In this document: piece after piece, positions 11,055 through 64,000 of the stretch
How positions within the stretch are numbered: the stretch's first letter is position 1
Layout of the letters: each line of letters begins with the position of its first letter
From: Thermobifida halotolerans
GTDB lineage: Bacteria > Actinomycetota > Actinomycetes > Streptosporangiales > Streptosporangiaceae
Assembly (NCBI RefSeq): GCF_003574835.2
Contig: NZ_CP063196.1
Coordinates: forward strand, 2,232,001-2,296,000
Length of the DNA stretch: 64,000 bases
Direction of reading: 5' to 3'
Notes under the pieces: generated by a model
The model's database searches: none
The model's input: only the letters and a program-made list of their open reading frames with translations
Told to the model about the DNA's origin: nothing
Position numbers and translations under genes: made by a program

Positions 11055-11058
11055 TGGG

Positions 11059-12470: not shown

Positions 12471-12827
12471 TGTTCGCTTCTGCGGTGGGCACGGGGGTCT
12501 GCGAAGAACCCGGGGAAGGGCGAGGCATTCCACCCCAGCCGCCCGGGGCGACCCCCACGGGTTGGCGGCGACTGGTCGAGGCACCCCGGCGCCGAGTCCG
12601 GGCGCGCCCCGCGGGCGGACCGGCCGAAGGAACACCGGCCACCCCAGGGGGCAGCGTCCTGTGGTGCGGGTGGGCGAGCCGTGTCCGGGCTCGGCGCCGG
12701 GCCACCACCGGCCACTGGCAGCCGGTGGTGGCCCACTTCTGAAGAGTTCTGCGGAACACCTCGGCCTCGCCAGGAGTGGCGGCGGAACCGCCTTCGCCGC
12801 GGAAGCAGACCATCGAACCCCGATGAG
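12471..12827 (-). repeat. Dispersed quasi-palindromic repeat, copy B (inverted)
   Basis: Reverse-complement relative of the block at 2530-2785. Shared stretches include TTCTGCGGTGGGC near 12478, GCATTCCACCCCA near 12525, CCCCCACGGGTTGGC near 12553, GGAGTGGCGGCGGAACCG near 12774 and CCATCGAACCCCGATGAG at the right end. It is about 100 bp longer because of extra GC-rich sequence in the middle. Its outer inverted repeat is less perfect than in copy A. No coding frame is supported. Confidence 0.55.
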
Positions 12828-13221
12828 TGCTCGGGGTACCCGAATACCCGTTGAGCGAGACCAACGCCATCAGGCACTCCAACCGAGCAGAAGCCAGACG
12901 GGGGCGTCTCACTGGCCGAGTCCCCTGGAATGCGGCGAGGGCACCCCAAGAACGTGTTCCCATCGACGGACGGCAGGGGCGCGGGCGCCTGCCCCGGACG
13001 ACGCCGGTGTGCGCGGAGCGGGCAACAGGGCCTCACGGTGTCTACGCCGAGGTCAAGCTCGCCGTAGGTAGTGCATAGTGAGCCCAACCGCAAAGGTGAG
13101 CGTGTCGTCTCCATGCCTTCTCTCGGCCTGTCCGTCTTGATCTAGATACCGAGGTGAAGACCTACCCACCGACAGGATGTGACAGTAAGAAAAGGGACTC
13201 CTCCCGAAGAAAGTTCAGGAT
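12828..13221. other. Noncoding stretch left of CRISPR array 1
   Basis: No gene is supported; the frames are arginine/proline-rich shadows. The last 70 bases before the first repeat are AT-richer but show none of the leader block found on the other side of the array. This fits the leader-distal end. Confidence 0.5.
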
Positions 13222-13916
13222 GCTGCTGCCCCTCGTAGGGGCGATGAGGAACGAGACCGTTCGGCACGTTCGCGCGTGCGCTCCTGTGTTGCTGCCCCTC
13301 GTAGGGGCGATGAGGAACTCGAGTCCGAGCCGTGCCCCCTGGTCCACGACAACGTGTTGCTGCCCCTCGTAGGGGCGATGAGGAACGCGCCGCCATGTCC
13401 GGCTCAGATCCGCACCGGACGTTGCTGCCCCTCGTAGGGGCGATGAGGAATCAGGGACCCCGCCCGGTCTACCTGACGCAGAGCCAGTTGCTGCCCCTCG
13501 TAGGGGCGATGAGGAATGAGGCCGCCCGGCAGGGCGGCACCCCCGCCCTCCGGTTGCTGCCCCTCGTAGGGGCGATGAGGAATGGGCAAGGCCCTCACCG
13601 CCCTGGTCGACCTCGGCATGTTGCTGCCCCTCGTAGGGGCGATGAGGAATCCGCAAGACCCGTCAGAAGGAGAACCGCGTGCACACGTTGCTGCCCCTCG
13701 TAGGGGCGATGAGGAATCGAGGTGTGCCGGTGGGCGCACGCCACCCAGGCCCGGTTGCTGCCCCTCGTAGGGGCGATGAGGAATCCAGGACGACGATGCC
13801 GGACGGCGCGCAGGCCACGCGTTGCTGCCCCTCGTAGGGGCGATGAGGAACCGTACCGGCACCACGGCGACGGCGCCCGCATCAAGTTGCTGCCCCTCGT
13901 AGGGGCGATGAGGAAC
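13222..13916 (-). CRISPR. CRISPR array 1 (11 repeats, 10 spacers)
   Basis: The plus-strand repeat begins GTTGCTGCCCCTCG and ends TAGGGGCGATGAGGAA (30 nt, followed by C or T). It starts at 13222, 13288, 13356, 13421, 13487, 13553, 13620, 13687, 13754, 13821 and 13886, giving periods of 65-68. The leftmost copy carries a mismatch (GCTGCTG), as expected of the leader-distal end. The base after the repeat is T in copies 4-9 and C in the others. The core GCCCC/GGGGC can form a 5-bp stem. Transcription is inferred to run leftward from the leader at 13917. The spacers show no eye-visible match elsewhere in the window. Confidence 0.95.
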
Positions 13917-14125
13917 CCCAGGGTAAAGTCGCTGGCCATGCCCGGTCCCAGGAACTGGTTTCGGTGAATTTTTTCAGCGAACCTCCGGTTGTGCATCCGG
14001 CCCCGGCGTGTCGCTGAAAACCGGGGTGTGCGGAGCGCCGACGAGTACATGTGCTGCTGCGTGGTTCCTCCTAGTAGACGACGTTGCAGCAGAGTAGCGA
14101 AGGGTCGCTGTCGCTGCGGCCGATC
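13917..14125 (-). promoter_or_regulatory. CRISPR leader of array 1
   Basis: GGGTAAAGTCGC lies 5 nt from the last repeat (13921-13932), exactly as at arrays 2 and 3. Farther out, TTTTCAGCGA (13971-13980) and TCGCTGAAAA (14011-14020) form an inverted repeat around ACCTCCGGTTGTGCAT. Near 14095-14122 a further GTAGCGAAG/TCGCTGCGG block matches leader 2. Over the first ~110 bp it is nearly identical to leader 2. It should hold the leftward array promoter and integration signals. Confidence 0.75.
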
Positions 14126-14291
14126 CCCTCTTCATGGTCCTCTCTGTTGCTGAAGATTCGTTCAGTCATGCCCACAACAGCGTGAATGCGAAACATGGGC
14201 GGACAGATTCATCTCCGTCCGATCTCGTGGAGAGACTTCCTGCTGTTCCTGCATGCCAGATAAGGGCACAAAGCGGCGCTTGGGGCTCTTT

Positions 14292-14324
14292 GGCCATACC
14301 GAAGACAAGAGGGTTGGTATGGCC
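14292..14324. promoter_or_regulatory. Candidate operator upstream of cmr operon
   Basis: GGCCATACC (14292-14300) and GGTATGGCC (14316-14324) are exact complements separated by 15 nt, 46 nt before the chosen cmr2 start. No other gene lies between the array 1 leader and cmr2, so this dyad probably marks the operon's promoter region. The binding protein is unknown. Confidence 0.5.
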
Positions 14325-14370
14325 CTAGATTCAGATGTCGAAGAGACGGCGTCGTGGAGGACAGGACTGG

Positions 14371-16113
14371 ATGAGCGGTGGAAAAGACTTCGTGGTGATC
14401 GGCTTGTCAGGGGTGCAGCGGTTCATCTCCGAAGCCCGGACCACCGCTGACCTGGCTAACGCCAGTGACATCATCGCGAAACTAGCCAGCGTCGCTATGG
14501 GCGAGTTCACCACGGACGAGTTGGTGATCCCCTTCCGCCTGGAGGAGGGGAGCCCGCCGAACCGGATTGTCGCCCTGGTTCCAGAGGGGACCGGTGTCCA
14601 GCGTGCCCGTGCTGCCACGCAGGCAGTACACGACCACTGGGAGAAGTGGGTCCGACAGCTCTTCGGAAGGCCGGTGGAAGTCCCCGGTTTTCCAGAGGTC
14701 TTCTGGAGCGTGGTTGGCCCCGAGGCGGGAGAGTACCTGCAGCAGTGGGAAGAGGCGCACGTGGCGCTGGCCGCGCGCAAGCGTCTGCGCGCTTTCGACG
14801 CCCCCGAATACTCAGGGGGACGCCCCTGCACCCTGGCTCCCCGCTGGGTCGCCGAGACCGAACCCCCCAAAGAGATCCCCGCGCACCAGCGCAACACGCA
14901 ACTGTCCGCTGCGGGATGGGTGAAGCGGCTCTGGCACACCGATAGGCGACTGTTCCGTTCCTCTCTCGGAACAGACGACTTCTTCTCGGGGCCGACCGGC
15001 TTCCCCTCCACATCGTCCATCGCCTCGGTGCCTTACCGGAAGGCGGTTCTGGAGCGACTCGCGGACCCCCAGGTGAACGATGCCGTGCGACGACTGCGCT
15101 CGGCCGCACGCGCGGTGATGGGCAGTGAGCGCTACCGCGCCTTGGAGGCGCCGATAGCGGCACTGCGCTGGGAAGCCAACGACCAACTGGCGATGTGGAT
15201 GGCCCGAGGCGCGGGGTGGTGGGTCTACCCGGAGGTGTGGCAGCCACAATCCCTGCGCCGCGAATACGCCGTCGCAGGACACATACTCGACGAAGACTGG
15301 GTGGACAAAGGGCGTACGGCCGCGACAGACCTGTACAAGGCCCTGGGGGCGGAAGGGCTCACCCCCTACTACGCGGTACTCGCGTCCGACCTGGACGACA
15401 TGGGAGTTTTTCTCGGTAGCAAGGGGATGAATGCCGAACGGCACCGCCAGGTCTCACAGCGCCTGGTCGACATCGCCCGTGCTCAGCGCGCGATTATCGA
15501 GGAACTGTCCGGGGTGGCCGTCTACGCGGGCGGTGACGATCTGCTCGCGTTCCTGCCCGCACGCACGGCACTGGAGGCCGCTGAGCGCTGCCGTGCCGCG
15601 ATCCCTAAGGAGGGCCTGCGCACGGCGAGTACGGCTGTGCTGTTCGCCCATTCCTACTCCTCCCTGCGCCACACGGTCGAGAAGACACGCTCACTGCTGG
15701 AAGCGGCCAAGGCGGTGCGCAAAAAGAATGCGCTGGCAACCGGTTTTGCCACCAGGTCAGGGACGTCGTTCCACACTGTGGCTCCGTGGACCGCCGACGG
15801 TTCCGAAGGACCGGGCTCCCTGCTGCGGATGTTCGTCCCAGACGGGGAAGAATCCTCGACCAGACTTTCTCCCCGGCTCGTCGCCGACCTGGAGCGAGAA
15901 CGGCGAGCACTGACCGAGCTCGTGAAGAAGACGAGCACCGTTGCCGCCTACCGGGCCGAGGTGACCCGCCTGGTGCTGCGGCATGGAGGCAGCCGAGTTG
16001 ACGCCGACGCGCTGATCTCCTGGGGAGACAACGACCGAGTGGACCGCGACGCTGTTTCGGCCCTCCTGGACGCGGCCCGAGTCGCGGTGTTCCTGCGTGG
16101 AGAGATCCAGTGA
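14371..16113 (+). CDS. cmr2: Cas10/Cmr2, type III-B large subunit without HD domain
   Basis: 580 residues. A first palm-like domain opens directly with FVVIGLSGVQRFISEARTTADL; a second palm holds the catalytic YAGGDDLLAF near residue 388, preceded by VLASDLDDMG. The GGDD motif is the cyclase site that makes cyclic oligoadenylates from ATP when target RNA is bound. There is no N-terminal HD (HxxxD) nuclease segment, so single-stranded DNA cleavage is probably absent. The ATG at 14371 is chosen for its GGAGG; an ATG at 14335 lacks one. First gene of an eight-gene operon whose genes overlap or abut. Confidence 0.92.
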   Translation: MSGGKDFVVIGLSGVQRFISEARTTADLANASDIIAKLASVAMGEFTTDELVIPFRLEEGSPPNRIVALVPEGTGVQRARAATQAVHDHWEKWVRQLFGRPVEVPGFPEVFWSVVGPEAGEYLQQWEEAHVALAARKRLRAFDAPEYSGGRPCTLAPRWVAETEPPKEIPAHQRNTQLSAAGWVKRLWHTDRRLFRSSLGTDDFFSGPTGFPSTSSIASVPYRKAVLERLADPQVNDAVRRLRSAARAVMGSERYRALEAPIAALRWEANDQLAMWMARGAGWWVYPEVWQPQSLRREYAVAGHILDEDWVDKGRTAATDLYKALGAEGLTPYYAVLASDLDDMGVFLGSKGMNAERHRQVSQRLVDIARAQRAIIEELSGVAVYAGGDDLLAFLPARTALEAAERCRAAIPKEGLRTASTAVLFAHSYSSLRHTVEKTRSLLEAAKAVRKKNALATGFATRSGTSFHTVAPWTADGSEGPGSLLRMFVPDGEESSTRLSPRLVADLERERRALTELVKKTSTVAAYRAEVTRLVLRHGGSRVDADALISWGDNDRVDRDAVSALLDAARVAVFLRGEIQ

Positions 16114-50764: not shown

Positions 50765-53278
50765 GTGCGACATGAGGTCGCTCGTTTCCAGTGGTTGCAT
50801 CGAATGGAGGTTCTCATAAGAGCGATGTAATCCAGATCAGTGTTCAGGATCTGTCTCCGCCTTTGGCGTGCGCGGCCGGTAACGGCCGGGTGCGAAGCCC
50901 GAAGGAAAGCCCAAGAGCCATTCCGTTCCCGTCGGAGGCCACAGGTGAGGAGAAGACCGGGCGGGCGAACGCGAGTGAACCCTTGATGAGGCCCCGTTAT
51001 AGCGACTTCCCGGAACGGGACGCAGGGCCGGGATGCAAAGGGACCAGCCGTGGAGAGACGGCAGGCGGCGACCGCCGCGTGACGGGCGGTCGTGAGGACA
51101 CCGCTGTCCCCGGGGTATAGAGGGCGCCCACTCCGGTCGGGTCTGGAACGTGCGGAACATGGAAACCCCGACCGGGTCCACTCTGCTGTGGATTGTCAGG
51201 CGAAGTGGTAGGCCAACCGTGAGGAAGGTTCAATTCCCGAGCGGGACGAGGATGCCCATGAAGCGAACGCCGATATCTCGAAAGAGAACAGGAAGTCGGA
51301 GCGGGATTCCCCGATCTCCACGGGTGCTTCGTATAACTGGTCGGATACCGGGTCTCCCGGACGCGAAAGCGGGCTGACGTGGACAGGTGGATCGTTGAGG
51401 ACGGATTGACGAAGGCACCGGAACTGATGGGCAAGTTGGACACCCGAGAGGTGAACGGACCTGAGGGCTCCTTGGAGTGGGGCGCCCTGGACTGGCGTTT
51501 CCACGAGAAGGAAGTACGGAGACTGCGTCAGCGAATCTTCAAGGCGACACGGGAGCAGAACTGGCCTCAGGTCAGGAATCTGCAGAAACTGATGCTGCGA
51601 AGCCGGTCGAACACGTTGGTCAGTGTGCGAAGGGTGACACAGCACAACGCTGGCCGCATGACAGCTGGAATCGACGGACAGGTTGCGCTGTCCGGCGAGG
51701 ACAGAATTCGAGTCGCTGATCAGGTGGATGACAGTCGTCGTACCTGGCGGCCTCGCCCTGTCAGGCGGGTGCACATACCCAAATCCGGACGTAAGACGAG
51801 AATGCGTCCACTGGGAATTCCAGTGATCATGGACCGGTGTCATCAGGCACGGGTCCGCAACGCACTGGAACCGGAATGGGAAGCACAGTTCGAGGCCCGC
51901 TCCTACGGGTTTCGTCCTGGACGTGGTTGCCATGACGCGATCGCGTACCTGTTCTCGGTGCTCGGCAGGAGGGATGCCAAGCGCCTGTGGATACTGGATG
52001 CGGACCTGTCAGCGGCATTCGACAGGATCGACCACGGCCATCTTCTGTCGAGGATCCGGGCATTTCCTGCCCGAGACATGATCCGTCGATGGTTAAAGGC
52101 TGGAGTGATGGAAAGGAGGAAGGGATTCACTCCCACAGAGGAGGGGTCTCCCCAGGGTGGGGTGATCAGTCCTCTGCTGCTGAATGTCGCGCTACACGGA
52201 TTGGAAGAGGCTGCTGGAACCCGTCTCTACACATCCGCTTCGAGATACGGAGTGATGAAGCCGGGTAGTCCCGCCGTGGTCAGGTACGCCGATGACTTTG
52301 CTGTGTGCTGCTTCTCCCAGGAGCAGGCGGAGCAGATTCAAAGGAGGTTGGCGGAGTGGTTGAAGCCGCGAGGGTTGTCCCTGAACGAGGAGAAGACACA
52401 TGTTGTCCATGTCTCGCAGGGATTCGACTTTCTTGGCTTCACTATCCGTCGTTACCACGGCAAACTCCTGATCACGCCGAGCAAGAAAGCGGTCTCAAGA
52501 CTCCGAGAGAGGCTGAAGGCCGAGATGCACCGCCTGCGTGGCTCCAATGCGGGAGCGGTGGTCTTGGCGCTCACCCCTGTTATCCGCGGGTGGTCAGCCT
52601 ATTATCGGGGGGTGGTCTCGTCCAGGGTGTTCAAGAAACTGGACGAGTATGTGTGGTGGCTTACCTGGCGGTGGGCCAAGCGCACTCACCCCGGTAAATC
52701 AAGGTACTGGGTGAAGCAACGGTACTTCGGTAGGTTCAACAAGGTCAGGAATGACAACTGGGTGTTCGGTGACCGCGACAGCGGCGCTTACTTGGTGAAG
52801 TTCTCCTGGACTCCTATTGTCCGTCACGTGATGGTCAAGGCGGGGTCGTCGATCGACGATCCTGACCTTGCGTCGTACTGGACCCATCGGCGCAGCAAGG
52901 TTAAACCGCCATTGGACGAGTACACGCTGTCTCTGCTGTCAAGACAGGGAGGCGTATGCTCGCTATGCGGAGAGGTCCTGCTCAGCGCCGATCAGCCGCC
53001 ACAGTCTCCGAGAGAGTGGGAGCGGTGGTGGCTGGTGATCTCTCGTAAGGCGATAAGTGCTGGTTATCTCGCGTATTACGAGGGTCCTGGTCCAGCGGGC
53101 GGAAAATTCACCAGTCTTGTGCATGATTCCTGTCGTCGTGGACTGGCTGCTCAGATGCGCAGGGATACAGCGGGAAGGTTCCGTAAGTCCACGAGATCTG
53201 CTTGAGCCGGATGCTGGGAAACTGGCACGTCCGGTTCTGAGGGGGCCCTGGCGCAGCAATGTGCCAGGGCTACCCGAC
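50765..53278 (+). mobile_element. Group II intron with encoded reverse transcriptase, about 2.5 kb
   Basis: The 5' end GTGCGAC at 50765 is the usual group II start. Domain V is clear at 53204-53237 (GAGCCGG, GAAA loop, GGTTCT); domain VI (about 53241-53272) has CCCTGGC paired with GCCAGGG, and the intron ends in GAC (AY). The encoded protein runs 51379-53205. Both junctions agree with the host-gene reading (exons join as H-T). All parts look intact, so splicing and retromobility may be active. Confidence 0.88.
51379..53205 (+). CDS. ltrA: Group II intron reverse transcriptase/maturase with HNH domain
   Basis: 608 residues if read from the GTG at 51379; an ATG at 51427 (MGKLDTREVNG) is an alternative. 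The RT domain has the YADDFAVC active site, the earlier FEARSYGFRPGRG and SPQGGVISPLLLN. Domain X follows (IRGWSAYYRGVVSS, VWWLTWRWAKRTHPGKSRYW), then a C-terminal HNH-type endonuclease with CSLCGEVLL and a later HDSCRRG. The full set means it can both help splicing and drive retrohoming. It ends right before intron domain V. Confidence 0.92.
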   Translation: MDRWIVEDGLTKAPELMGKLDTREVNGPEGSLEWGALDWRFHEKEVRRLRQRIFKATREQNWPQVRNLQKLMLRSRSNTLVSVRRVTQHNAGRMTAGIDGQVALSGEDRIRVADQVDDSRRTWRPRPVRRVHIPKSGRKTRMRPLGIPVIMDRCHQARVRNALEPEWEAQFEARSYGFRPGRGCHDAIAYLFSVLGRRDAKRLWILDADLSAAFDRIDHGHLLSRIRAFPARDMIRRWLKAGVMERRKGFTPTEEGSPQGGVISPLLLNVALHGLEEAAGTRLYTSASRYGVMKPGSPAVVRYADDFAVCCFSQEQAEQIQRRLAEWLKPRGLSLNEEKTHVVHVSQGFDFLGFTIRRYHGKLLITPSKKAVSRLRERLKAEMHRLRGSNAGAVVLALTPVIRGWSAYYRGVVSSRVFKKLDEYVWWLTWRWAKRTHPGKSRYWVKQRYFGRFNKVRNDNWVFGDRDSGAYLVKFSWTPIVRHVMVKAGSSIDDPDLASYWTHRRSKVKPPLDEYTLSLLSRQGGVCSLCGEVLLSADQPPQSPREWERWWLVISRKAISAGYLAYYEGPGPAGGKFTSLVHDSCRRGLAAQMRRDTAGRFRKSTRSA

Positions 53279-54163: not shown

Positions 54164-55957
54164 GTTGCGATCCCTCCAGGGATGATCAGCGACCCGGCCC
54201 GTCGAGGAGGCGCCGCCGCGGGTGACGGTGTTGCGATCCCTCCAGGGATGATCAGCGACGCCAGGTGGTCGGACACGTCGGCGCCGGGCCGGTGTTGCGA
54301 TCCCTCCAGGGATGATCAGCGACTGGTGCCCGCAGGCAGGGACCACAGGGTCGGTAGGCCGTGTTGCGATCCCTCCAGGGGTGATCAGCGACTCGGGAGG
54401 TCCTGTGGACAAGACCAGCTCTTCGGTGGTTGCGATCCCTCCAGGGATGATCAGCGACCATCCAGGTGACGACGTGGGACAGGTCATCGCCGTGTTGCGA
54501 TCCCTCCAGGGATGATCAGCGACGTGTGCGCGCCGCTGAGGCGCGGCGTAGGCAGGGGTTGCGATCCCTCCAGGGATGATCAGCGACCATCCAGGTGACG
54601 ACGTGGGACAGGTCATCGCCGTGTTGCGATCCCTCCAGGGATGATCAGCGACCATCCAGGTGACGACGTGGGACAGGTCATCGCCGTGTTGCGATCCCTC
54701 CAGGGATGATCAGCGACCGGGACCGGCCGCTCCCGTCGTGGGAGGAGGTCGCGTTGCGATCCCTCCAGGGATGATCAGCGACCAGCATGCTGCTGGTCGG
54801 CGCCGTCGAACTGGGGTGGTTGCGATCCCTCCAGGGATGATCAGCGACCTGGTGTGCCCAGGGCCAGCGCGGCCAGCACGGCGTTACGATCCCTCCAGGG
54901 ATGATCAGCGACCCGTAGGCGCGGGCCTTGCGGATGAGGCGTCCGGGTTGCGATCCCTCCAGGGATGATCAGCGACCCACGTCGACCTGGACGCGATCGA
55001 GGCTGAGGCCGCGTTGCGATCCCTCCAGGGATGATCAGCGACGCCAGCCCTAGCGCGCCGGGCGTCGGCCTGCCACGTTGCGATCCCTCCAGGGATGATC
55101 AGCGACGCCAGTGCCCAGCGCAGTTGAGCACGATGGACAGGTTGCGATCCCTCCAGGGATGATCAGCGACCATGGGCTGGATCAGCGACCGCCGCAGGGA
55201 GCGCGCGTTGCGATCCCTCCAGGGATGATCAGCGACGGGGGCGCACCGGCAGCGCCCGCGGCTGGCGGATGTTGCGATCCCTCCAGGGATGATCAGCGAC
55301 CGAGATGACGCCGACGGTCAGGAGGGGCACGGCCAGTTGCGATCCCTCCAGGGATGATCAGCGACGAGATGAGATGACCAGCAGATACCAGCAGGTAGCG
55401 GAGTTGCGATCCCTCCAGGGATGATCAGCGACCGGAGTACACCAGGGTGCGCATGCCAGCCCCCGAGTTGCGATCCCTCCAGGGATGATCAGCGACCCGA
55501 GGTCCTACGTCGGCGGAGGGTCACGTCACCGTTGCGATCCCTCCAGGGATGATCAGCGACTCGGTGGGTGACTCTCCAGGTTCGATCTCTCCGGGTTGCG
55601 ATCCCTCCAGGGATGATCAGCGACGGGGCAGTCCTCTGCCGGTGGGCCGGGCGGTGGCGGGTTGCGATCCCTCCAGGGATGATCAGCGACCCGGGGGAGA
55701 CCATCCCGCACCAGACGGATCTCTGGTTGCGATCCCTCCAGGGATGATCAGCGACCGCGGGAGCGGCTGCGCCGTATCGAGGCCCTGGAGGAGTTGCGAT
55801 CCCTCCAGGGATGATCAGCGACCCTGTGACCCATGAGAGGGGCGCGAGCCGCGCCCCCTGTTGCGATCCCTCCAGGGATGATCAGCGACCCGGACCAGCT
55901 CCCGGACGCGCCAGACGTCGGCGTCGTGTTGCGATCCCTCCAGGGATGATCAGCGAC
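54164..55957 (-). CRISPR. CRISPR array 3 (28 repeats, 27 spacers), type I-B
   Basis: Plus-strand repeat of 30 nt begins GTTGCGATCCCTCCAG and ends GGATGATCAGCGAC. Repeats start at 54164, 54230, 54294, 54363, 54429, 54494, 54558, 54623, 54688, 54753, 54819, 54883, 54947, 55013, 55077, 55141, 55207, 55271, 55336, 55403, 55467, 55531, 55595, 55661, 55729, 55793, 55860 and 55928. Variants: GGGGTGATC in copy 4 and GTTACG in copy 12. Spacers 5, 7 and 8 are identical (CATCCAGGTGACGACG onward). Leader and cas genes are on the right, so it is transcribed leftward. Confidence 0.97.
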
Positions 55958-56072: not shown

Positions 56073-56345
56073 TCACAGCACAGGGCTGCCGCTAGAGAAC
56101 TCCTGTCCGATCGTCTCGGTCTGTACGGCGTGATGCGTCTGCATACGGTAGATGAGTACACTGTCGTACTCTAGGTCGATGACTCCCTTGACTGCTTCGG
56201 TGAAGGAGCGGTGCTGGGCTGCAGACAGTTCCCCTTGGAAAACGCTGCGTTGAACCCAGTGAAGATACTGGCGGCAGGTCTTCAGGATCTTGGGGTTGCG
56301 CTCAGCGAGCGTGTCATAGACCACGACAACGAACACGGTCACCAC
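56073..56345 (-). CDS. cas2: Cas2, adaptation nuclease-fold protein
   Basis: 90 residues. VTVFVVVVYDTLAERNPKIL holds the first-strand Asp (VYD), followed by LHWVQRSVFQGELSAAQ, the normal Cas2 pattern for type I systems. Cas2 is the dimer that bridges two Cas1 dimers during spacer integration. It overlaps the end of cas1; the second GTG (GTGACC) may be the actual start. Last gene of the operon; the leader of array 3 starts right behind it. Confidence 0.92.
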   Translation of the reverse strand: MVTVFVVVVYDTLAERNPKILKTCRQYLHWVQRSVFQGELSAAQHRSFTEAVKGVIDLEYDSVLIYRMQTHHAVQTETIGQEFSSGSPVL

Positions 56346-57319
56346 CAGGGCCGGAAGGGTTTGTAAGAAGTCCCCTCGAGACAGAGGCGGACGATCTTAA
56401 GGGCTTCGAGGTGAATCAGCTCCTCATAGCTGACCTTGCGCTTGAGGGATCGGTGGTAAACGGTGCTGGCCAGCTCGGCCCGCAGCATCTCGGCAACTTT
56501 CTTACGACCTCCCTTACTCAATGAGGCCCGCGCGACGTCGCTTTCGAAGTCGGACTGGCGGAGGGTTTTCTGTGCAGCCGCGCGGCGGAGCAGCCGCTCA
56601 GCGAAGAGCGGCTTGAAAGGTTCGGCCAGATCCAAAGCGAGGGTGTTGCGGCGGCGGTCGGTATCGGCGTGCAAAAACCCGATTGCAGGATGTAACGGTG
56701 TACAGCGCAGAGCGGTCAGCATGCGCGCGTAGACGATGGTGTTGACATAGCTGATGAAGGCGTTTCCGGCATTGGACGGCGGCCGCCGCGTGCGGCCGTT
56801 GAGGCGGAGCCAGGGCGGCAACATGGTGTCCAGTACCTCCCACGAGCTGCGCCGGAAATTACCTTCGATTCCCATGAGAGCGTTACTGTCTCCAGCGGTG
56901 GGAAGATCTTCGGTAAGACGCTTCAAAGGGGCGTCGAGCAGATCGGTGTCCAGTGCCCATTTCACGTTGGCCGCGGTGGTGGCGACGATATCGCGGGCCG
57001 CTGTGAGTCGCAGGTGCGTGTCACTGGTGACTTCGACCTGGCGGCGCAGCGCAAGAGCCGAACTCATCCCCTCGTGCGGGGTGAAAGAACCGGCGTAGTT
57101 GCCGTAGTGGTCAAGCAGGTGCACGGTGATGTCGTGCCGGTTGAGCAAGGAGACCACCGAGGTGTTCACGTCGACGTGGTCGAAGGCGACAAGGTCGCGG
57201 ATGTCGGTGATGGGGATGCGTATCGGCGTCTGATCGGGGCGTTCAATGCGAATGCTGTTGTCTTCGCGGCGGATGCGGCAGGGTTCGGTGAGCCAGTAGG
57301 TGCGCGCTGCGGCGGTCAC
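56339..57319 (-). CDS. cas1: Cas1, spacer integrase (type I-B kind)
   Basis: 326 residues. The catalytic trio is visible: E in LMGIEGNFRRSSW (about 150), H in IGFLHADTDRRRN (about 218) and the acidic ALDLAEPFKPLF region after it. It integrates new spacers at the leader end with Cas2. The GTG at 57319 overlaps the cas4 stop (GTGA). The leader motif shared by all three arrays makes this the only candidate integrase for all of them in this window. Confidence 0.95.
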   Translation of the reverse strand: MTAAARTYWLTEPCRIRREDNSIRIERPDQTPIRIPITDIRDLVAFDHVDVNTSVVSLLNRHDITVHLLDHYGNYAGSFTPHEGMSSALALRRQVEVTSDTHLRLTAARDIVATTAANVKWALDTDLLDAPLKRLTEDLPTAGDSNALMGIEGNFRRSSWEVLDTMLPPWLRLNGRTRRPPSNAGNAFISYVNTIVYARMLTALRCTPLHPAIGFLHADTDRRRNTLALDLAEPFKPLFAERLLRRAAAQKTLRQSDFESDVARASLSKGGRKKVAEMLRAELASTVYHRSLKRKVSYEELIHLEALKIVRLCLEGTSYKPFRPWW

Positions 57320-57822
57320 AGGTCTCCCCAGCAGTAGTCACGGTAGGAGCAGCCACGGCAGCGACTGCGGGGCAGGCGGGGTGCCGGTTGGTCGGCGGCG
57401 ATGACGTCTTTGGCCGCCTGCTCGGTCTTTTCGGCCTCGGCCCGGGCGAAGGCGTCCCAGGCGACCTCGGTGGTGCGGCGGACGAGGGGGTAGTGGACTA
57501 CGCCGCGGGCAATGTTGACGCCCAGCCGGGCCAAAAGCAGGCAGTAGTGCCGGACCTGGGCCTCGTGTTGCGGGGATGGGGTGCGCGAGGACTTGGTCTC
57601 GTGCACGACCGCCCCGGTGGTGACCCAGTCGATCTTGGCCTCGCCGAGGTCGATGTCACGGCGCCGTGTGTAGGTCGTGGCGTCCAGTGCCTCTCCGAAG
57701 GCAACACTGCTGTTGTTCTGCTCCGGCCGGTAACCCCGGGAATAGAGCCATAATTGGCGGGGGCAGTGGAGCAGGTACTTGATGTGCACGCCCCCGATAC
57801 CGTTGTCGGTCTCCTCGGTCAC
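57316..57822 (-). CDS. cas4: Cas4, Fe-S exonuclease
   Basis: 168 residues. The first Cys is in LLHCPRQLWLYSRG; the RecB-like core has DWVTTGAVVHETKSSR (the E-T-K of motif III) and HEAQVRHYCLLLARLG. The last three Cys are in SRCRGCSYRDYC and make the Fe-S site. Cas4 trims prespacers and sets PAM and orientation. It overlaps the Cas5-Cas3 gene (GTGA) and cas1. Confidence 0.93.
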   Translation of the reverse strand: MTEETDNGIGGVHIKYLLHCPRQLWLYSRGYRPEQNNSSVAFGEALDATTYTRRRDIDLGEAKIDWVTTGAVVHETKSSRTPSPQHEAQVRHYCLLLARLGVNIARGVVHYPLVRRTTEVAWDAFARAEAEKTEQAAKDVIAADQPAPRLPRSRCRGCSYRDYCWGDL

Positions 57823-60800
57823 AGAATCGTCCCTCCTTGCGGGCTCAAGCCCGGGCTTGGGCCTTTGGCCGCGGCCAGGTCCAGTCCGATCTCGGGGTCA
57901 TAGGGCAGGTCGGTGACCCACAGGTGCGGCCCGCCCGGGCCTGCGGCAACAGGGCGGGCGCGGCGAGCGGTTCTGATCCTCATGAACTGGGTGAAGCGAA
58001 CCGGAATAAGTAACTCGGCGGCCAACAGCGGGTCGGCGGCATAGCGCTCGAGGTAGTCTTCCTCGTCGTCAGCGTGAAGGATTTCCACCGAGTCGAACGC
58101 CTCGTCGAGTCGGGCCGCGTACTCGCTTCGGTCTTCGAAAGGCTCGGTGAAGGTGAGGAAGTCACGCATGAACTCATCCCGGGCACGCCGGGCATCACGC
58201 TCCCACTGCCGCCCCCATTCGGTGTCATAGGCCAGACGCAGCCAGTCATCGATGGTGTGCTCGGAAATCATCGGCCCGGGGACCTGATGCAGGGCATACC
58301 GGGCGGCTTCGATGGCGCCTTCCTCGTAGGGAAGGTGGTTCTCGGTCTCGTGGACCCGGAACTCCACCGGCCCCTCGGGGTGACGGCCCCGCCTGTTGAC
58401 CCGGCCTGCGCGCTGCGCCAGTGCTTCCACCGGCGCCAGTTCACTCACCCCCCGGTCGAAGTCAAGGCACAGCGAGACTTCCAGGGCTTGGGTGGCGACG
58501 ACGAGGCCACCTCGACGTCCTGGCTCTCCCTCGTCGCGTTCCGGATGGCGTCGGCGGATCCGGTGTTCGATGGCGGCGCGGTCGCAGGCACGGAAGCGTG
58601 AGTGCAGCAGCACGGCCGCGTCGGGGTCGTCCGGCAAGGATTCACGTGCCGCCGGTGCGAGCCGCCGGTAGAGGTGTTGGGCCGTGGCGACGGTATTGGC
58701 GATGGCGAGCACGCTGTGGCCCTGAGCCAGCCACTCGCTGATCCGCTGGAGTGCGGAGGGATCGGTGATGGTTTGTTCGTCCAGGACCAGGTGGTGTCGG
58801 TCAGGGGCGGTGCCGGCAGGTGTCCTGTGGACAGTCACAGGACCGGTGAGGCTCGGTGAGGCACCGTCGCTGGGCGCGTCGGAGAGGAGGGCGAGCATGG
58901 GTGGGGCCAGCGTGGCCGAAAGCACCGCGATGCGGCTGCCCAACTGCTCCCACAGTTGCATGGCCGCACAGATCCGGCCGAAGGTGACCGGATCATAGGC
59001 GTGCAGTTCGTCCAGGACGAGGAGGGCGTTGGCCTGTTCAAGCAGGAAGCTGGAGTAGCGGGGCCCGGCGATCGCTGCGCGCAGAAGCTGATGGGGGGTG
59101 GAGACCCGGACCCGCTGGACGAACAGGGACCGCATCGCCTCCGCCTGGGCTCGCGCCTTGGCCGCGGAAACCGCGGCGTCGTCGATGTCGGTCGCTCCGT
59201 CCTCGCTGGTCATCTCCGCCAGGAGGCTCTGGGCCGCGGTGGCGTGCAGCACGGCGATGTCGGGGCGTTCCTGCCCGGGAGGGGCGAGGAGGCCGCCGGC
59301 CAGGCGTCTGCGCGCGGCGTCGATGGAGGCCCGGTAGGGCAGTACCCACACCAGCCGCGGGTGGCCGCCCATGTCGTCGATCTGGCGGGAGGCCCAGGCC
59401 AGTGCGGCTTCGGTCTTTCCGCTGCCGGTGGGTGAGCACAGCACCAGATGGCCGTCGGTCTCGGCTGCGGCCTTCTGGTGGGGGTAGGGGGCTGTCAGGG
59501 TGGCGATGTAGTCGCGCGGCAGCGGCATGTGGGTCTGCAGGGCGGTGTGGGAGGAGCCGCAGTGGTCGGCCAGCGTGACCGCTCCTTGGGCCAGCACCGC
59601 CACCAGCCCTTCGTCCGGGGGGACCGGGCAAGACCAGTCGTCGCGGACTTGGGCGAAGGCGTCCCGGGCCAATTCCCATATCTTGTGTCGGCCGAGCGGT
59701 TCGGGCTCTTGACCCAACCGGTCGGCGTACCAGCCCAGCAGGGCCAGGTGTCGCTTCTTGGGGATCTGCCCCTTGGGTCGGCCTTCGGGGGCGGTCGGAT
59801 CGTGTCCGAACTTCTTCTGCCAGTCGGCTGTGGCCGGGTAGCGCTCCGCCAGCCCGCGGGGGCCGGGAAGAGGGCGGTGGTGGAAGGCCACACCGGCTGC
59901 GGCCAACTTCTGTTCCTGAGGTTTCAGGTGTCCGGTGAGTAGGTGGAGGTAGGCCAGGGAGAGCACTTCATGGCGCTCTCCCCAGCGGTCCTTCTTCGAG
60001 CGGATCTGGCGCTGGAAGCCTTCGGCGATCTTTCCCGCGTCGTGCAGGAGTGCGGCGGTCTCCACCGCGGCCCAGAATCCGGGGTGCTCGGCGAGCACTC
60101 CGGGGGAATCGATCCGGTCGGCCACGGCTCGGGCGGCTTCCTGTACCGCCTTGCTGTGTTCGGTCAGTGTCTCGGGACGTCCCAGAGCGGAGTAGGCGGC
60201 CGACTTGGCCCACACTCCGGCCAACTCTCGTCGCTGCTCTTCCTTGTACTCTCGGCTGCCGTTTCCCTCCAGCGTGTGCAACCAGACGGCCTGGTCATCG
60301 GAGGGGTCGCGGTAGGCCCCGTGGACAGGGGCCCGCCCGGCTGGTTCGGCGCACCACAGATAGTCACCGAACCGGGTCCACTGGCGGTCGGGGGTGATGG
60401 TCTCAGCCAGGCGCAGGGGGGTTGCCTGCGGGGCCTCGTGTCCCCCGGCGGGGGCCAGAGCGTGACCGATGTGTGCTTCTTCGGCGGGGTGGAGCACGGT
60501 GGGGGTGATGGAGCGGATGTGGACCAGGTCCTGGGAACGGCCCAGGCGCAGCGGCCACACCGGGCTGCGCAGGGCCGCCGCGATACGGTCGGCATCAGGA
60601 GAGGCCACCCACAGGCTCAGGTGTATGCCGGTGAGGAAGGGGCATTGGCGCAGCGTGGTGCCGCCCTTGCCGGCCTGCACCCGCCCGCCCACTGCCGGGT
60701 TGGTCCCGTTGGAGGCGATCGGGTGGTAGGTCTCGGCATCGGTGCCCTGTCCTTCGGCGTGCGCGCTCATCCCCAGGGTGACCGGCTCGGACCGTCGCCC

Positions 60801-60950
60801 GCTGGCGGCTGCCAGCATCCCTCGGACGGTGGAGGGCGGTGGGACGGGTAGGCAGCGGGTCGTCCTGGGAAACATCGGGTCGCGGAAGGAGGCCACGGGA
60901 GCGTACAGCTCGATCCGCACCGCCTCGACTGGCGCTCGCGGTGGTGTCAT
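57819..60950 (-). CDS. Cas5-Cas3 fusion (type I-B)
   Basis: 1043 residues from the ATG at 60950 (GTGAGGA RBS; 9 bp after cas7). Residues ~10-235 are Cas5: RIELYAPVASFRDPMFPRTT, then PVPPPSTVRGMLAAASG. A short linker (NGSREYKEEQRRE) precedes Cas3: HD nuclease (EHSKAVQEAA about 264, ALLHDAGKIAEGF about 300), helicase Walker A CSPTGSGKTEAAL (about 505), DExH-type VLDELHAYDP (about 645) and motif VI QRAGRVNRRG (about 843). Thus the crRNA 5'-handle subunit and the target-DNA nuclease-helicase form one chain, with no stop, start or frameshift between them. Cas3 is normally recruited only after target binding. Confidence 0.93.
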   Translation of the reverse strand: MTPPRAPVEAVRIELYAPVASFRDPMFPRTTRCLPVPPPSTVRGMLAAASGRRSEPVTLGMSAHAEGQGTDAETYHPIASNGTNPAVGGRVQAGKGGTTLRQCPFLTGIHLSLWVASPDADRIAAALRSPVWPLRLGRSQDLVHIRSITPTVLHPAEEAHIGHALAPAGGHEAPQATPLRLAETITPDRQWTRFGDYLWCAEPAGRAPVHGAYRDPSDDQAVWLHTLEGNGSREYKEEQRRELAGVWAKSAAYSALGRPETLTEHSKAVQEAARAVADRIDSPGVLAEHPGFWAAVETAALLHDAGKIAEGFQRQIRSKKDRWGERHEVLSLAYLHLLTGHLKPQEQKLAAAGVAFHHRPLPGPRGLAERYPATADWQKKFGHDPTAPEGRPKGQIPKKRHLALLGWYADRLGQEPEPLGRHKIWELARDAFAQVRDDWSCPVPPDEGLVAVLAQGAVTLADHCGSSHTALQTHMPLPRDYIATLTAPYPHQKAAAETDGHLVLCSPTGSGKTEAALAWASRQIDDMGGHPRLVWVLPYRASIDAARRRLAGGLLAPPGQERPDIAVLHATAAQSLLAEMTSEDGATDIDDAAVSAAKARAQAEAMRSLFVQRVRVSTPHQLLRAAIAGPRYSSFLLEQANALLVLDELHAYDPVTFGRICAAMQLWEQLGSRIAVLSATLAPPMLALLSDAPSDGASPSLTGPVTVHRTPAGTAPDRHHLVLDEQTITDPSALQRISEWLAQGHSVLAIANTVATAQHLYRRLAPAARESLPDDPDAAVLLHSRFRACDRAAIEHRIRRRHPERDEGEPGRRGGLVVATQALEVSLCLDFDRGVSELAPVEALAQRAGRVNRRGRHPEGPVEFRVHETENHLPYEEGAIEAARYALHQVPGPMISEHTIDDWLRLAYDTEWGRQWERDARRARDEFMRDFLTFTEPFEDRSEYAARLDEAFDSVEILHADDEEDYLERYAADPLLAAELLIPVRFTQFMRIRTARRARPVAAGPGGPHLWVTDLPYDPEIGLDLAAAKGPSPGLSPQGGTIL

Positions 60951-60958
60951 CGCCGTCC

Positions 60959-62020
60959 TCACCGCTGCGGGTCGTCGAACCAGTGGTCGCACGCCCCGGC
61001 TCGGATCTCCTCGGCCAGGCCCCTCAGCAGTGGCCGGGGGTGGTCCATGACCACCCTGCCTCCGCCGACCAGCGGGGCGGCCTGGTTGTCGAACTCCTTA
61101 CGCGCCCGGTCCCGGAAGCCCGGCCGCCAGCCGATCCGTACCGGCATTTCCCACTGTCCCTGCCAGGCCTCCAACTCCTGGGCGAGCACATCGCCGCGTA
61201 CCCGCAGCCCGGAGCCGTCTTCGGCGCCATCGACGACGAACCCCAGCGGGTTGACGCCGCCGGCCATCGGCACCAGCGCGACCAGGGCCGGAGTGCGGTC
61301 GCCGTAGTGCAGCGCCTTCTTGGCTCCTCCGGCCAGGTCCGCGATCGCCTCCAGCAGTAGGGCCACCCGCTCCCGGCGGGTCTCCAGCGGCAGACGCAGC
61401 GCCTGCTGGCCGCGGAAGGAGACCATCGTCGCCCCCGCCTCGATGGCGGCGGCGGCCTTCATCGCCTCCTGCTTGCTGAGGTAGTTGGCCTTCCCGCCTT
61501 TTTTGCCGGCCAGGGTGAAGGTGCCGACCCGGGGAAGGTCGAGCAGGAACGGCGCGGCGAGGTCGGCGGTGTAGAACTGGTGGGAGTGCAGGACCGGCTC
61601 GTCGATTCCGCGCGACATCACCCCGAAGTCCTCGGTGACGCGCACCGGTTCCACCGACATGAACGTCCCCACCATGAACGGGCTGTCCCGCAGGGTGGTG
61701 GCGTCGTCCTTGGACTTCGCGGCCGCTTTCATGTAGCCGAACAGGTCGTCGTCGGCGAATCGTGCGGGATCGGCCGCGGTGGTGGCTTTCTGCGCTTTGC
61801 CCTGGGCTTTGCCCACGCGTTCCACCGTGGAGGGGACCGATCCGGCGGCGGTCATGGTGTCGCGCACCCACCGGCGGAACGCCTGCGCCGACACATAGGG
61901 GTGGATCCGACCGCGTACCCGCGCGTACTTCACCGGGGTCGTGGTGGTGTTCTCACTCTTGCCGTTGTTGGGCGCGCCCGCTTCGACCGCGAGCACGATC
62001 TTTCCCGCCAGGTAGCTCAT
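60959..62020 (-). CDS. cas7: Cas7 (Cst2/DevR type), Cascade backbone
   Basis: 353 residues. GKIVLAVEAGAPNNGKSENT, then RIHPYVSAQAFRRWVRDTM, fits the DevR/Cst2 Cas7 pattern; the middle has LRDSPFMVGTFMSVEPVRVTE and SRGIDEPVLHSHQFYTADL. Several copies should coat the crRNA spacer in the type I-B Cascade. The ATG at 62020 overlaps the cas8 stop (ATGA). A short gap of 8 bp to the Cas5-Cas3 start. Confidence 0.92.
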   Translation of the reverse strand: MSYLAGKIVLAVEAGAPNNGKSENTTTTPVKYARVRGRIHPYVSAQAFRRWVRDTMTAAGSVPSTVERVGKAQGKAQKATTAADPARFADDDLFGYMKAAAKSKDDATTLRDSPFMVGTFMSVEPVRVTEDFGVMSRGIDEPVLHSHQFYTADLAAPFLLDLPRVGTFTLAGKKGGKANYLSKQEAMKAAAAIEAGATMVSFRGQQALRLPLETRRERVALLLEAIADLAGGAKKALHYGDRTPALVALVPMAGGVNPLGFVVDGAEDGSGLRVRGDVLAQELEAWQGQWEMPVRIGWRPGFRDRARKEFDNQAAPLVGGGRVVMDHPRPLLRGLAEEIRAGACDHWFDDPQR

Positions 62021-63447
62021 CAGACATACTCCTCGTCACGCTCGTCCACATCGGCCAACGGGTCGTCGAACCGCGTCGGTTCTTCTTCGTCGGGGTCCTC
62101 CTCGTGCCCGGACAGGGAGACGCCCAGCCGACCCAGCTCGGCCAGGACCTCGAACCACAGCAGAGCGCGCAGCCTCCACCCGTTCGCTCCGGCGGCCAGC
62201 AGGTCCTCCACCACTGCCGCCGTCACGTCGCCGGGTTCACCGCCGTCGAGGTAGAGGCGGGCGCTGACGGCCATCAGCAGCTTGTGCAGGGGGTAGGCGC
62301 TGCCGGCCACCCGGCGGTACTCGTTGAACCGTCCCCGACTGGACTCGGTGGCGATCCAGCGCGCCACCATTCGGGCGAGTGGTTTGAGTTGTTCGGTGTC
62401 CACTGCGTGCATCTCCTCCAGGTAGACGGCGACCAGGGACCGCCACGTCTCGACTTTTCTCCGCAGGACCGTCTCGACGGCGGTGCTGCGTTTGAACAGT
62501 TCAGCGACCAGGCGGTCGCGCGGTGCCAGTTGCGGGTCGAACAGGAGCCGGGCCAGGGCCGTCGTGCCGTCCACCACGGTCCTGCCCGCCGCATCGGTCC
62601 GGTGCAGTGTGCGTTTGAGGTCCTGCCACCCTTCTCGGCAGGCGGGGTCGCTCAGCATGCGCTGCAGGAACCGGGTGGTCCCGATCCTGGTGGAGACCAC
62701 CTTCAGCCACGGTTCCTGGTTGTCGTTCTTGAACATCCACAGGGTGGCGGCCACGGGGTTGTGGACCGCGTGCTCCCTCAGTGCCCGCAGTGCTACGGCT
62801 TCTGGGCCGACACCGTCGGTCAGGCGGTTGAAACCGAGTTGGCGGATACGGTTGGCACGCTTCACGTTGCGCGTGACGAAAGCCCACTCGACCTGCGGAT
62901 CCTCACAGGTCAGCACGGTGGCCGACCCCGCGGTCAGCCACGCCCCGTAGGGCAGCGCCCACATCGCCAGGCGGCACCCGTGGCAGATCGGCCACCCCAG
63001 GGTCTTCGGCGGCAGCGTGTTGATCGTCTTCGCCGTGTCGAACAGCGGCAGCGTGGATTTGGTCCACAGCACCGTGCATTCCTGACCGCAGAACACGCAC
63101 GGGTGGACCTGTCCTTCTCCGGGGTCCGGGCCGAGGATCGCAGCGGTCTGCGACCGCATCACGCCGCGGTCGCGCTGGCGACTGTGGTGGGTGGGTTTGG
63201 CGCCGGGGTAGAGCGCGAAGAGCACTTTCCACCAGTCGTAGCTGCTGTCCTCCTTGGAAGCGGCCGCCGCGATCGCGACGTCCTCGGTTATGCGCTGCGC
63301 GGCTTGCTCCAGATCTTCTGCACTCAACTGTTCGGGCCGTCGCCTGTCCGCCAGCGCGGTAAGGGCCCACGCACCGCAGCGCTGGAGCGGATGCCCGGTC
63401 AATCTCAGGGAGGGGGTGGAAGCGGGTGAGTCGATCACTTCACCCAC
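62020..63447 (-). CDS. cas8b: Cas8b (Cst1 type), Cascade large subunit
   Basis: 475 residues. LRLTGHPLQRCGAWALTALA at the N-terminus matches Cst1; CVFCGQECT and CHGCRLAMW form the zinc-finger pair typical of this subtype, near residues 117-158. The C-terminal helices (ARMVARWIATESSRGRF, LLMAVSARLYLDGG) are Cas11-like and might also be made separately. It reads PAM and opens the target duplex. The GTG at 63447 overlaps the end of cas6 by 13 bp. It defines the operon as type I-B rather than I-C or I-E. Confidence 0.88.
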   Translation of the reverse strand: MGEVIDSPASTPSLRLTGHPLQRCGAWALTALADRRRPEQLSAEDLEQAAQRITEDVAIAAAASKEDSSYDWWKVLFALYPGAKPTHHSRQRDRGVMRSQTAAILGPDPGEGQVHPCVFCGQECTVLWTKSTLPLFDTAKTINTLPPKTLGWPICHGCRLAMWALPYGAWLTAGSATVLTCEDPQVEWAFVTRNVKRANRIRQLGFNRLTDGVGPEAVALRALREHAVHNPVAATLWMFKNDNQEPWLKVVSTRIGTTRFLQRMLSDPACREGWQDLKRTLHRTDAAGRTVVDGTTALARLLFDPQLAPRDRLVAELFKRSTAVETVLRRKVETWRSLVAVYLEEMHAVDTEQLKPLARMVARWIATESSRGRFNEYRRVAGSAYPLHKLLMAVSARLYLDGGEPGDVTAAVVEDLLAAGANGWRLRALLWFEVLAELGRLGVSLSGHEEDPDEEEPTRFDDPLADVDERDEEYV

Positions 63448-64000
63448 CCGAACCCCTGGTTGTTCGCCAGCCCCAGCCCCCAGTCGTACAACGCGTCCAG
63501 CAGCGCGGGCGACGCGTGAACTCGCACGGTCAGCGGAGCTCCGATTCGAAGCCCTTTCCCCGCGCGGAACATACGGCGGTGTCCTGCTTTGAGAACCTCC
63601 ACCTCCGTTTCGGAGGCCACCCCGAGCGCATCGGCCTTGTGGCGGATGTTGTGGGCCAGTCGCTCCTCATATCCCGTGTCTTCTGGGAGCAGGAAGCGGT
63701 CGTCGTGTTTGAGTACCACCGGGGATACCGTTTCGAAGACCGCCACACCGGAGGAATGCTCAGGCGGCGCCTCCATCTGGACACCGTTGACCCGCAGCGG
63801 TGTCCTTCCCCACCGCAGTTCGTTGGCCCCTCCCAGTCCCGCCAACAGGCACGCGGCGATGCGGGGCACCGGGGACCCCAAGCGCAGCATCCCCCTGTTC
63901 GAGGTCGCATAGGTTCCCTTCTTGCGCGGCGCACCGGGAAACACCGGTGGGCAGAGCCCGAGCGGCCGCAAAGGCGTACCGTTCCAACCGATGTCGTGCA
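63435..64000 (-). CDS. cas6: Cas6, crRNA-processing endonuclease (5' end missing)
   Basis: The frame is open to the window's right edge; the first residues seen are HDIGWNGTPLRPLGL, so the true start lies beyond 64000. The C-terminal part has a RAMP fold with LTVRVHASPALLDALYDWGL and the Gly-rich GLGLANNQGFGW end that is the mark of Cas6. It would cut the CRISPR RNA at the repeat hairpin. A candidate catalytic His is not settled from this portion. It is the only cas6 in the window and may serve the Cmr arrays too. Confidence 0.85.
   Translation of the reverse strand, partial: HDIGWNGTPLRPLGLCPPVFPGAPRKKGTYATSNRGMLRLGSPVPRIAACLLAGLGGANELRWGRTPLRVNGVQMEAPPEHSSGVAVFETVSPVVLKHDDRFLLPEDTGYEERLAHNIRHKADALGVASETEVEVLKAGHRRMFRAGKGLRIGAPLTVRVHASPALLDALYDWGLGLANNQGFGWVK

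What the first reader, a model, noticed from the sequence alone, without database searches (positions are those of the whole stretch)
57819..60950. Cas5 and Cas3 fused in one polypeptide
A continuous ORF encodes a complete Cas5 (residues ~10-235) followed by a complete HD-helicase Cas3 with HD, Walker A, DELH and QRAGRVNRRG motifs. I know of Cas2-Cas3 and Cas8e-Cas3 (Cse1-Cas3) fusions, but a Cas5-Cas3 fusion is unfamiliar to me. If functional, Cas3 would be permanently tethered to Cascade near the crRNA 5' handle, so the usual conditional recruitment must be replaced by another control.
Basis: partly seen in the sequence, partly recalled or inferred. Interest (0 to 1): 0.8.

Follow-up and report, generated by a model that had tools for sequence, protein, structure and literature searches.

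The report
Cas5–Cas3 fusion in actinomycete CRISPR
In a group of actinobacteria, the DNA-shredding enzyme of a CRISPR immune system is made as one piece with a part of the guide-carrying complex instead of being called in later; the fusion is real and long conserved, but it has already been mentioned in print.

Summary
Window 57819–60950 (− strand) is one open frame of 1043 codons: complete Cas5b (residues 1–224), a 21-residue linker, and complete Cas3 (HD nuclease, helicase, C-terminal domain). It sits in a complete type I-B operon (cas6–cas8b–cas7–cas5::cas3–cas4–cas1–cas2) beside a 28-repeat array.

It is not an assembly error or recent accident. I found 18 further distinct fused genes (60–76% identical to the window's) in Nocardiopsidaceae, Streptosporangiaceae, Thermomonosporaceae and Frankiaceae. 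Catalytic motifs are kept on both sides, dN/dS is low in the five pairs tested, and the linker varies from 15 to 66 residues. The four nearest unfused relatives have two neighbouring genes divided where the fusion is joined. The tree needs one change of state, but that branch is weakly supported. The window's own genome also carries a more distant I-B locus in split form.

The fusion is not new: Altae-Tran et al. 2023 (PMC10910872) report in one sentence "a type I-B variant with a fusion of Cas5 to Cas3". I saw no characterisation of it, and could not check whether theirs is this clade.

Most likely, each Cascade carries one tethered Cas3 that stays gated by R-loop formation. This is inferred. 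Types I-A and I-G are precedents for Cascade-resident Cas3.

The parts
57819..60950 (-). cas5::cas3 fusion gene, 1043 aa
   Evidence: continuous frame; Cas5 and Cas3 family hits; fold match of both halves
60279..60950 (-). Cas5b part, residues 1-224 (ends ...QAVWL)
   Evidence: PADLOC Cas5b 9-227; fold match 7-232 to 8fcj_A; RLGRSQD in 19 of 19 fused rows
60216..60278 (-). linker, residues 225-245; 15-66 aa in the 19 fused rows, with more Asp+Glu than Lys+Arg in each
   Evidence: junction comparison
59496..60215 (-). Cas3 HD nuclease domain, residues 246-485; H265, H303-D304, H327, H357-H358, D462
   Evidence: TIGR01596; invariant in alignment A1 of three and in 19 of 19 fused rows; domain border approximate
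57822..59495 (-). Cas3 SF2 helicase and C-terminal domain, residues 486-1043 (Walker A 507-513, DELH 647-650, QRAGRVNR 846-853)
   Evidence: TIGR01587, PF22590; motif counts
60959..62020 (-). cas7 (Cst2/DevR, I-B)
   Evidence: TIGR02585 1.5e-63, above cut-off
62020..63447 (-). cas8b large subunit
   Evidence: PADLOC Cas8b 8e-15; no NCBIfam or Pfam hit at 0.001
63435..64000 (-). cas6 (runs past the window end; its open frame begins at genome position 2296130 = window 64130)
   Evidence: TIGR01877 1.4e-20, above cut-off; read with adjoining stretch L020
57316..57822 (-). cas4 (start overlaps the fusion's stop by 4 nt)
   Evidence: PF01930 9.9e-46, PADLOC Cas4b 1.7e-79
56339..57319 (-). cas1 (I-B)
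   Evidence: TIGR03641 6e-98, above cut-off
56073..56345 (-). cas2
   Evidence: TIGR01573, PF09827, both above cut-off
54164..55957 (-). CRISPR array, 28 repeats of 30 nt (Rfam matches are on the + strand; transcription with the operon, on the - strand, is presumed)
   Evidence: 28 matches to RF01325; repeats

Best explanation
The gene makes one polypeptide that is both the Cas5b subunit of a type I-B Cascade and its Cas3 nuclease-helicase. The Cas5 part caps the crRNA 5' handle next to Cas8b, so every Cascade carries one Cas3 on a short flexible tether. Target search and PAM reading proceed as in other I-B systems. When the R-loop forms, the tethered Cas3 docks on Cas8b and the displaced strand without having to be found by diffusion, then nicks and unwinds the DNA. 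The nuclease stays off until then, either because docking still needs the R-loop-induced shape of Cas8b and the displaced-strand bulge, or because HD is held inhibited as in type I-A. Shown here: the fusion, completeness of both halves, conserved catalytic residues, purifying selection in the pairs tested, a joint at the gene boundary of the split relatives. Inferred: assembly into Cascade, one-to-one stoichiometry, docking, gating.
For: Both halves are complete by family and fold. The operon holds cas6, cas8b, cas7, cas4, cas1, cas2 and an array; the next relative of either half in the genome lies about 67 kb away. There are 19 distinct fused genes including the window, 60–76% identical to it. 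The Cas5 motif, HD residues, Walker A, DELH, SATL and QRAGR motifs are kept in every row that reaches them. dN/dS in Cas5, HD and helicase is 0.05–0.38 in five chosen pairs. The linker varies in length and sequence while its flanks (AVW[LM] and V[LWF][AG]KS) are kept, as expected of a tether. No start codon is conserved at the Cas3 boundary; the valine codon there is GTG in 13 of 19 rows, GTC in 3, GTT in 2, GTA in 1. In the four nearest unfused relatives Cas5 ends 3–9 residues after QAVWL, and in three of them a possible Cas3 start overlaps the Cas5 stop by 4 nt. An engineered Cas3–Cse1 fusion entered E. coli Cascade and gave resistance (PMC3890593, passage).
Against: No protein, binding or cleavage data. 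The Synechocystis I-B Cascade is described as recruiting Cas3 in trans after R-loop formation (PMC11096372), so I-B does not need a tether. I could not place the Cas5 and Cas3 ends on a Cascade structure, so the reach of a 15-residue linker is untested. Cleavage of the linker in vivo is not excluded. A test for relaxed constraint on Cas8 (expected if docking were dispensable) was not clear: median Cas8/Cas7 distance ratio 1.71 in 111 fused pairs against 1.59 in 180 split pairs, 10–90% ranges overlapping and pairs not independent; Cas6 differed more (1.60 against 1.21), so such ratios move for other reasons. Phage matches of the array were weak (37 records at E up to 1; the 15 listed all have E 0.6), so activity of this array is not shown.
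Confidence: 0.65

Rival explanations
1. The fusion is only a translational convenience: the chain is cut in the linker, or Cas3 is also made from an internal start, so that working Cas5 and Cas3 are separate as in other I-B systems.
For: The linker is the least conserved stretch. Internal starts are known for other cas genes: PMC11096372 describes an internal ribosome-binding site in cas8b that gives Cas11. A GTG stands at the Cas3 boundary of the window gene.
Against: The GTG is not conserved (13 of 19 rows). Length and make-up of the linker change widely, so no shared cleavage site is visible. The fusion has persisted across genes down to 60% identity, where two abutting genes would serve separation just as well.
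Confidence: 0.2
2. The fusion mainly serves spacer acquisition, bringing Cas3 products or the Cas4-Cas1-Cas2 machinery to Cascade, in the manner of the Cas2-Cas3 fusion of type I-F.
For: The gene is followed by cas4, cas1 and cas2, with a 4-nt overlap to cas4; 25 of the 26 fused loci show cas1 (the other, L056, ends at a contig edge).
Against: The partner is an interference subunit, Cas5, not Cas1 or Cas2; many split relatives have the same neighbours.
Confidence: 0.08
3. Artefact or decaying gene: a missed stop, an assembly error or a pseudogene.
For: None found. One Frankia locus looked split, but the break is a run of N in the scaffold.
Against: 18 further distinct fused genes, intact motifs and low dN/dS, complete operon.
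Confidence: 0.01

Closest known systems
Type I-B variant with a Cas5–Cas3 fusion (Altae-Tran et al. 2023, PMC10910872; passages seen, not the supplement)
   Same: same subtype, same two proteins fused; the authors suggest direct loading of Cas3 at the target
   Different: no sequence, host or clade could be compared (supplement not available), so identity of the clade is unproven
Cse1–Cas3 (Cas8e–Cas3) fusion of type I-E (PMC3890593, passages: fused forms exist, and an engineered E. coli one works)
   Same: Cas3 covalently tied to a Cascade subunit
   Different: partner is the large subunit, subtype I-E; here the partner is Cas5 in I-B and Cas8b is separate
Type I-A and I-G effectors with Cas3 as a stable component (PMC11096372, passages and Discussion)
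   Same: works like: Cas3 resident in the complex before target binding (inferred here)
   Different: no covalent fusion; in the I-A structures HD and helicase are separate chains; other subtypes
Cas2–Cas3 fusion of type I-F
   Same: Cas3 fused to another Cas protein
   Different: partner belongs to adaptation; here cas2 is a separate gene
Split Cas5/Cas3 type I-B operons of actinomycetes (e.g. Micromonospora antibiotica L074, Streptomyces sp. NBRC 109706 L057)
   Same: same set of cas genes and the closest unfused Cas3 on the tree
   Different: Cas5 and Cas3 are separate genes that abut or overlap

Membership tests
Type I-B CRISPR-Cas | Cas8b large subunit with Cas7b, Cas5b, Cas6b and Cas3 | tested here: met
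   PADLOC Cas8b 8e-15, Cas7b 4.1e-64, Cas5b 1.8e-27, Cas6b 4.4e-65, Cas3b 3.9e-195
Type I-B CRISPR-Cas | I-B Cas1 and Cas4 with an array | tested here: met
   TIGR03641 above cut-off, Cas4b, 28 repeats
Cas5 family | Cas5 fold over full length with its conserved N-terminal region | tested here: met
   PF09704, TIGR02593 above cut-off; 8fcj_A Z 14.9, 190 aligned
Cas3 (single chain, HD + SF2 helicase) | HD residues, Walker A, DExH, motif VI, C-terminal domain | tested here: met
Cas3 | nuclease and helicase activity | not testable with these tools
   sequence only
Published I-B Cas5–Cas3 fusion variant (PMC10910872) | Cas5 fused to Cas3 in a I-B locus | tested here: met
   text of the paper
Published I-B Cas5–Cas3 fusion variant (PMC10910872) | same clade or sequences as the published locus | not testable with these tools
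Cse1–Cas3 fusion (I-E) | Cas3 fused to the large subunit Cas8e | tested here: not met
   partner is Cas5; Cas8b is a separate gene
Cas2–Cas3 (I-F) | Cas2 domain fused to Cas3 | tested here: not met
   cas2 is a separate gene at 56073-56345
Type I-A-like integral Cas3 | Cas3 stably bound to Cascade without target, HD autoinhibited | not testable with these tools
   needs purified complex

The most novel reading that the evidence does not exclude
A whole clade of actinomycete I-B systems has given up trans-recruitment: Cas3 is a fixed Cascade subunit and is switched on only by an allosteric R-loop signal. If so, recruitment as a checkpoint was replaced by an I-A-like activation checkpoint in one step, at a gene boundary, and has been stable since. 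Natural linkers from 15 to 66 residues give a ready-made series for testing how tight the tether may be.
Probability: 0.3. Interest if true: 0.65.

Novelty: new member of a known kind. Interest (0 to 1): 0.42.

Why it matters
In most type I subtypes Cas3 is recruited only after R-loop formation (PMC11096372), a step usually seen as a safeguard (recalled). A long-conserved natural fusion of Cas3 to the Cascade core suggests that separate recruitment is not needed in one I-B lineage, and makes the question 'is recruitment itself the checkpoint, or only activation?' testable. Split sister systems, and a more distant split I-B locus in the window's own genome, serve as comparisons. A two-in-one chain also cuts the number of parts of a I-B effector for editing tools.

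Tried and rejected
Assembly error, missed stop or pseudogene: rejected by 18 further distinct fused genes, intact motifs and low dN/dS.

Internal start for a free Cas3: no conserved start codon at the boundary; not excluded for single species.

An apparent loss of the fusion in Candidatus Frankia californiensis (L077), counted as 'split', turned out to be a run of N in the scaffold exactly in the linker. It was set to 'undetermined'.

Relaxed constraint on Cas8b in fused systems: not clear.

Proof of activity from spacers: the array against phage records gave only weak matches. Fused relatives in viral contigs: none confirmed among 19 pattern matches. In the plasmid collection 56 records match; the two that cover 80% or more of the query carry Cas5 and Cas3 as separate annotated features. 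A first scan of genome contigs with the single protein found none; the alignment found 42 loci, led by two Cas5 peptide patterns of the fused clade, so independent fusions elsewhere in bacteria could have been missed.

Rows dropped before counts: of 67 loci classified, 11 were duplicates of a locus held from another collection (8 fused, 3 split; frames identical). L087 was left out for scaffold gaps and L037 for lack of Cas5 at a contig end; with the window this gives the 55 rows. L088 (25-residue match) was not classified. L056 is fused but cut by a contig end. The L030/L048 match runs past a TAG; its Cas5 and Cas3 share one frame whose end is that of the Cas3 match.

Solved structures: 30 distinct sequences matched alignment A2, named as Cas3 or its parts, Cas5e, an anti-CRISPR/Cas2-3 entry, or other helicases; the table shows only the best stretch of each.
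Full report
What is there. The frame at 57819–60950 (− strand) is open over 1043 codons. Its neighbours on the same strand are cas6 (63435 to beyond the window edge), cas8b (62020–63447), cas7 (60959–62020), cas4 (57316–57822), cas1 (56339–57319) and cas2 (56073–56345), followed by an array of 28 repeats at 54164–55957. PADLOC assigns Cas8b, Cas7b, Cas6b, Cas5b, Cas3b, Cas4b and Cas1b, so the operon is type I-B. The first 224 codons of the gene are Cas5b, residues 225–245 a linker, and residues 246–1043 Cas3 with HD, helicase and C-terminal domain. An AlphaFold2 model built on 44 rows (mean pLDDT 86.8, pTM 0.76) matches 8fcj_A, the Cas5 of a type I-B CAST Cascade, over residues 7–232 (Z 14.9, rmsd 3.4, 190 aligned of 212) and T. 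fusca Cas3 4qqz_E over residues 240–1025 (Z 21.1, rmsd 5.1, 680 aligned). Both halves are complete.

Is it real? A search of 60 genomes, the window's own included, gave fused frames in two others (L006/L022, L007/L023) and split genes in more. A sample of 200 genomes from the window's family gave 38 with a match; 11 of the 200 carry the fusion, counting the window, and one (G118) is undetermined because its contig ends. In a sample of 296 genomes from the phylum four matched at E up to 1e-60; the three other than the window's own have frames of 791–805 aa that match only the Cas3 part. A scan of the species-genome collection with the alignment of three fused proteins gave 42 loci, all titled as actinomycetes. 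Of the 41 classified, 15 are fused, 24 split and 2 undetermined because of scaffold gaps. After removing loci held twice (frames identical), 19 distinct fused genes remain, the window included. They lie in Nocardiopsidaceae, Streptosporangiaceae, Thermomonosporaceae and Frankiaceae, some in genomes without a name, at 60–76% identity to the window. The scan was led by two Cas5 peptides of the fused clade, so it says little about independent fusions elsewhere.

Anatomy of the joint. On the left the 19 fused genes read AVWL or AVWM, on the right V[LWF][AG]KS. Between them lie 15–66 residues, 15 or 16 in 11 of 19 rows and longest in two Frankia (66 and 55) and one Actinomadura (44); Asp plus Glu outnumber Lys plus Arg in 19 of 19. 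In the four nearest unfused relatives Cas5 ends 3–9 residues after the same QAVWL. In three of the four a possible start of Cas3 overlaps the Cas5 stop by 4 nt; in the fourth (L059) the start is unclear. The fusion therefore kept both genes whole and was joined at the old gene boundary. Some more distant split loci (for example L024, L038, L039) have Cas5 and Cas3 in the same frame with a single stop codon between them, an arrangement close to fusion.

History. A tree of the Cas3 part (55 rows) puts all fused rows in one group of 24 (support 100) that also holds five rows labelled split; the labels need 2 changes against a shuffled mean of 16.0. One of those five, L077, is not split but interrupted by a scaffold gap. 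A concatenated tree of Cas5, Cas3, Cas7 and Cas1 (32 rows, L077 unlabelled) needs one change, against a mean of 9.7 for shuffled labels. The branch for a single origin is weak (68/32) and 66% of 200 bootstrap trees need only one change; what is open is mainly the place of two Micromonosporaceae. The window's genome also holds a second, split I-B locus about 67 kb away that belongs to the other large group.

Selection. In five chosen pairs dN/dS is 0.05–0.38 in Cas5, HD and helicase and 0.09–0.31 in the C-terminal part where it could be computed (four of five); the linker has too few codons or is saturated. RLGRSQD of Cas5 and the HD histidines and aspartates listed under parts are kept in 19 of 19 rows (a histidine next to the last aspartate is Arg in three). 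Walker A is PTGSGKT in 17 and PTGTGKT in 2; DELH and SATL are kept in 19 of 19, QRAGR[VI]NR in the 18 rows that reach it; L056 ends at a contig edge before it. Nothing suggests that either half is decaying.

How it most likely works. In the Synechocystis I-B Cascade, Cas5b sits at the crRNA 5' handle beside Cas8b and helps to read the PAM; the large subunit offers the surface for Cas3, which is recruited after full R-loop formation (PMC11096372, abstract, passages and Discussion). A Cas3 tied to the end of Cas5 would thus hang near its expected docking place. I propose that the tether turns a meeting of two molecules into docking within one complex, at one Cas3 per Cascade, with cutting still tied to the R-loop. 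The precedents are an engineered Cas3–Cse1 fusion that entered Cascade and gave resistance (PMC3890593, passage) and types I-A and possibly I-G, where Cas3 is a stable component activated allosterically (PMC11096372). Assembly, stoichiometry, docking and gating are inferred, not shown. A search for relaxed constraint on Cas8b, which would speak for loss of docking, was not clear.

What is known. Makarova et al. 2011 (PMC3150331, passages) describe the Cas2/Cas3 and Cas5–Cas6 fusions. PMC3890593 (passages) names Cas2–Cas3 and Cas3–Cse1. Altae-Tran et al. [quoted passage not shown] one search counted 11 and listed 10. I looked at matching passages of all 13, and in those passages none but PMC10910872 states a Cas5–Cas3 fusion; the rest give gene orders, other fusions or unrelated matters. 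One search listed seven papers on rare variants, of which I opened only PMC10910872. Only PubMed Central papers under open licences are held, and the supplement of PMC10910872 was not available. So the kind is known; its distribution, joint, history and constraint as given here are, as far as these searches reach, additional.

Verdict. A real, conserved natural fusion, already mentioned in print, with no functional study found. Interest moderate.

Noticed in passing
window 50832-53278 (+): Group II intron (Rfam RF02012 at 50832-50918, RF00029 at 53202-53278) with a reverse transcriptase/maturase of 608 aa (51379-53205, TIGR04416) about 0.9 kb from the CRISPR array.
   Followed up: no
L021 (G000:C1:2350001-2370000), about 5350-15600: Second I-B locus in the same genome, split cas5 and cas3, with a different repeat; cas1 matches only residues 1-46 and cas2 only residues 6-57, so its adaptation genes look broken; three repeat arrays of two repeat kinds lie around it.
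   Followed up: partly
L004 (G000:C1:4471665-4475852) and L005 (G000:C1:1795210-1798560): Two further Cas3-like genes in the same genome, best matched by the PRK09694 Cas3 model (290 and 277 bits, below its cut-off of 569), so the genome seems to hold at least four Cas3 genes.
   Followed up: no
L024 10374 (+), L038 2152 (reverse-strand coordinate), L039 2155 (+): Split relatives in which cas5 and cas3 are in the same frame with one stop codon (TGA or TAG) between them, 24 nt before the AKS motif: close to a fusion.
   Followed up: partly
L077 (Candidatus Frankia californiensis), between about 6750 and 7090: A run of N lies exactly in the Cas5-Cas3 linker, possibly because the linker DNA is repetitive and hard to assemble.
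   Followed up: no
CRISPR repeats of fused loci and of L059, L074, L075: The 15 distinct fused rows with an array in the held DNA have repeats with a CCCTGGAGG core (4 fused rows show no array there); the split L059, L074 and L075 have it too, while many other split loci have CCCCTNNGAGGG, so the repeat type goes with the clade rather than with the fusion.
   Followed up: partly
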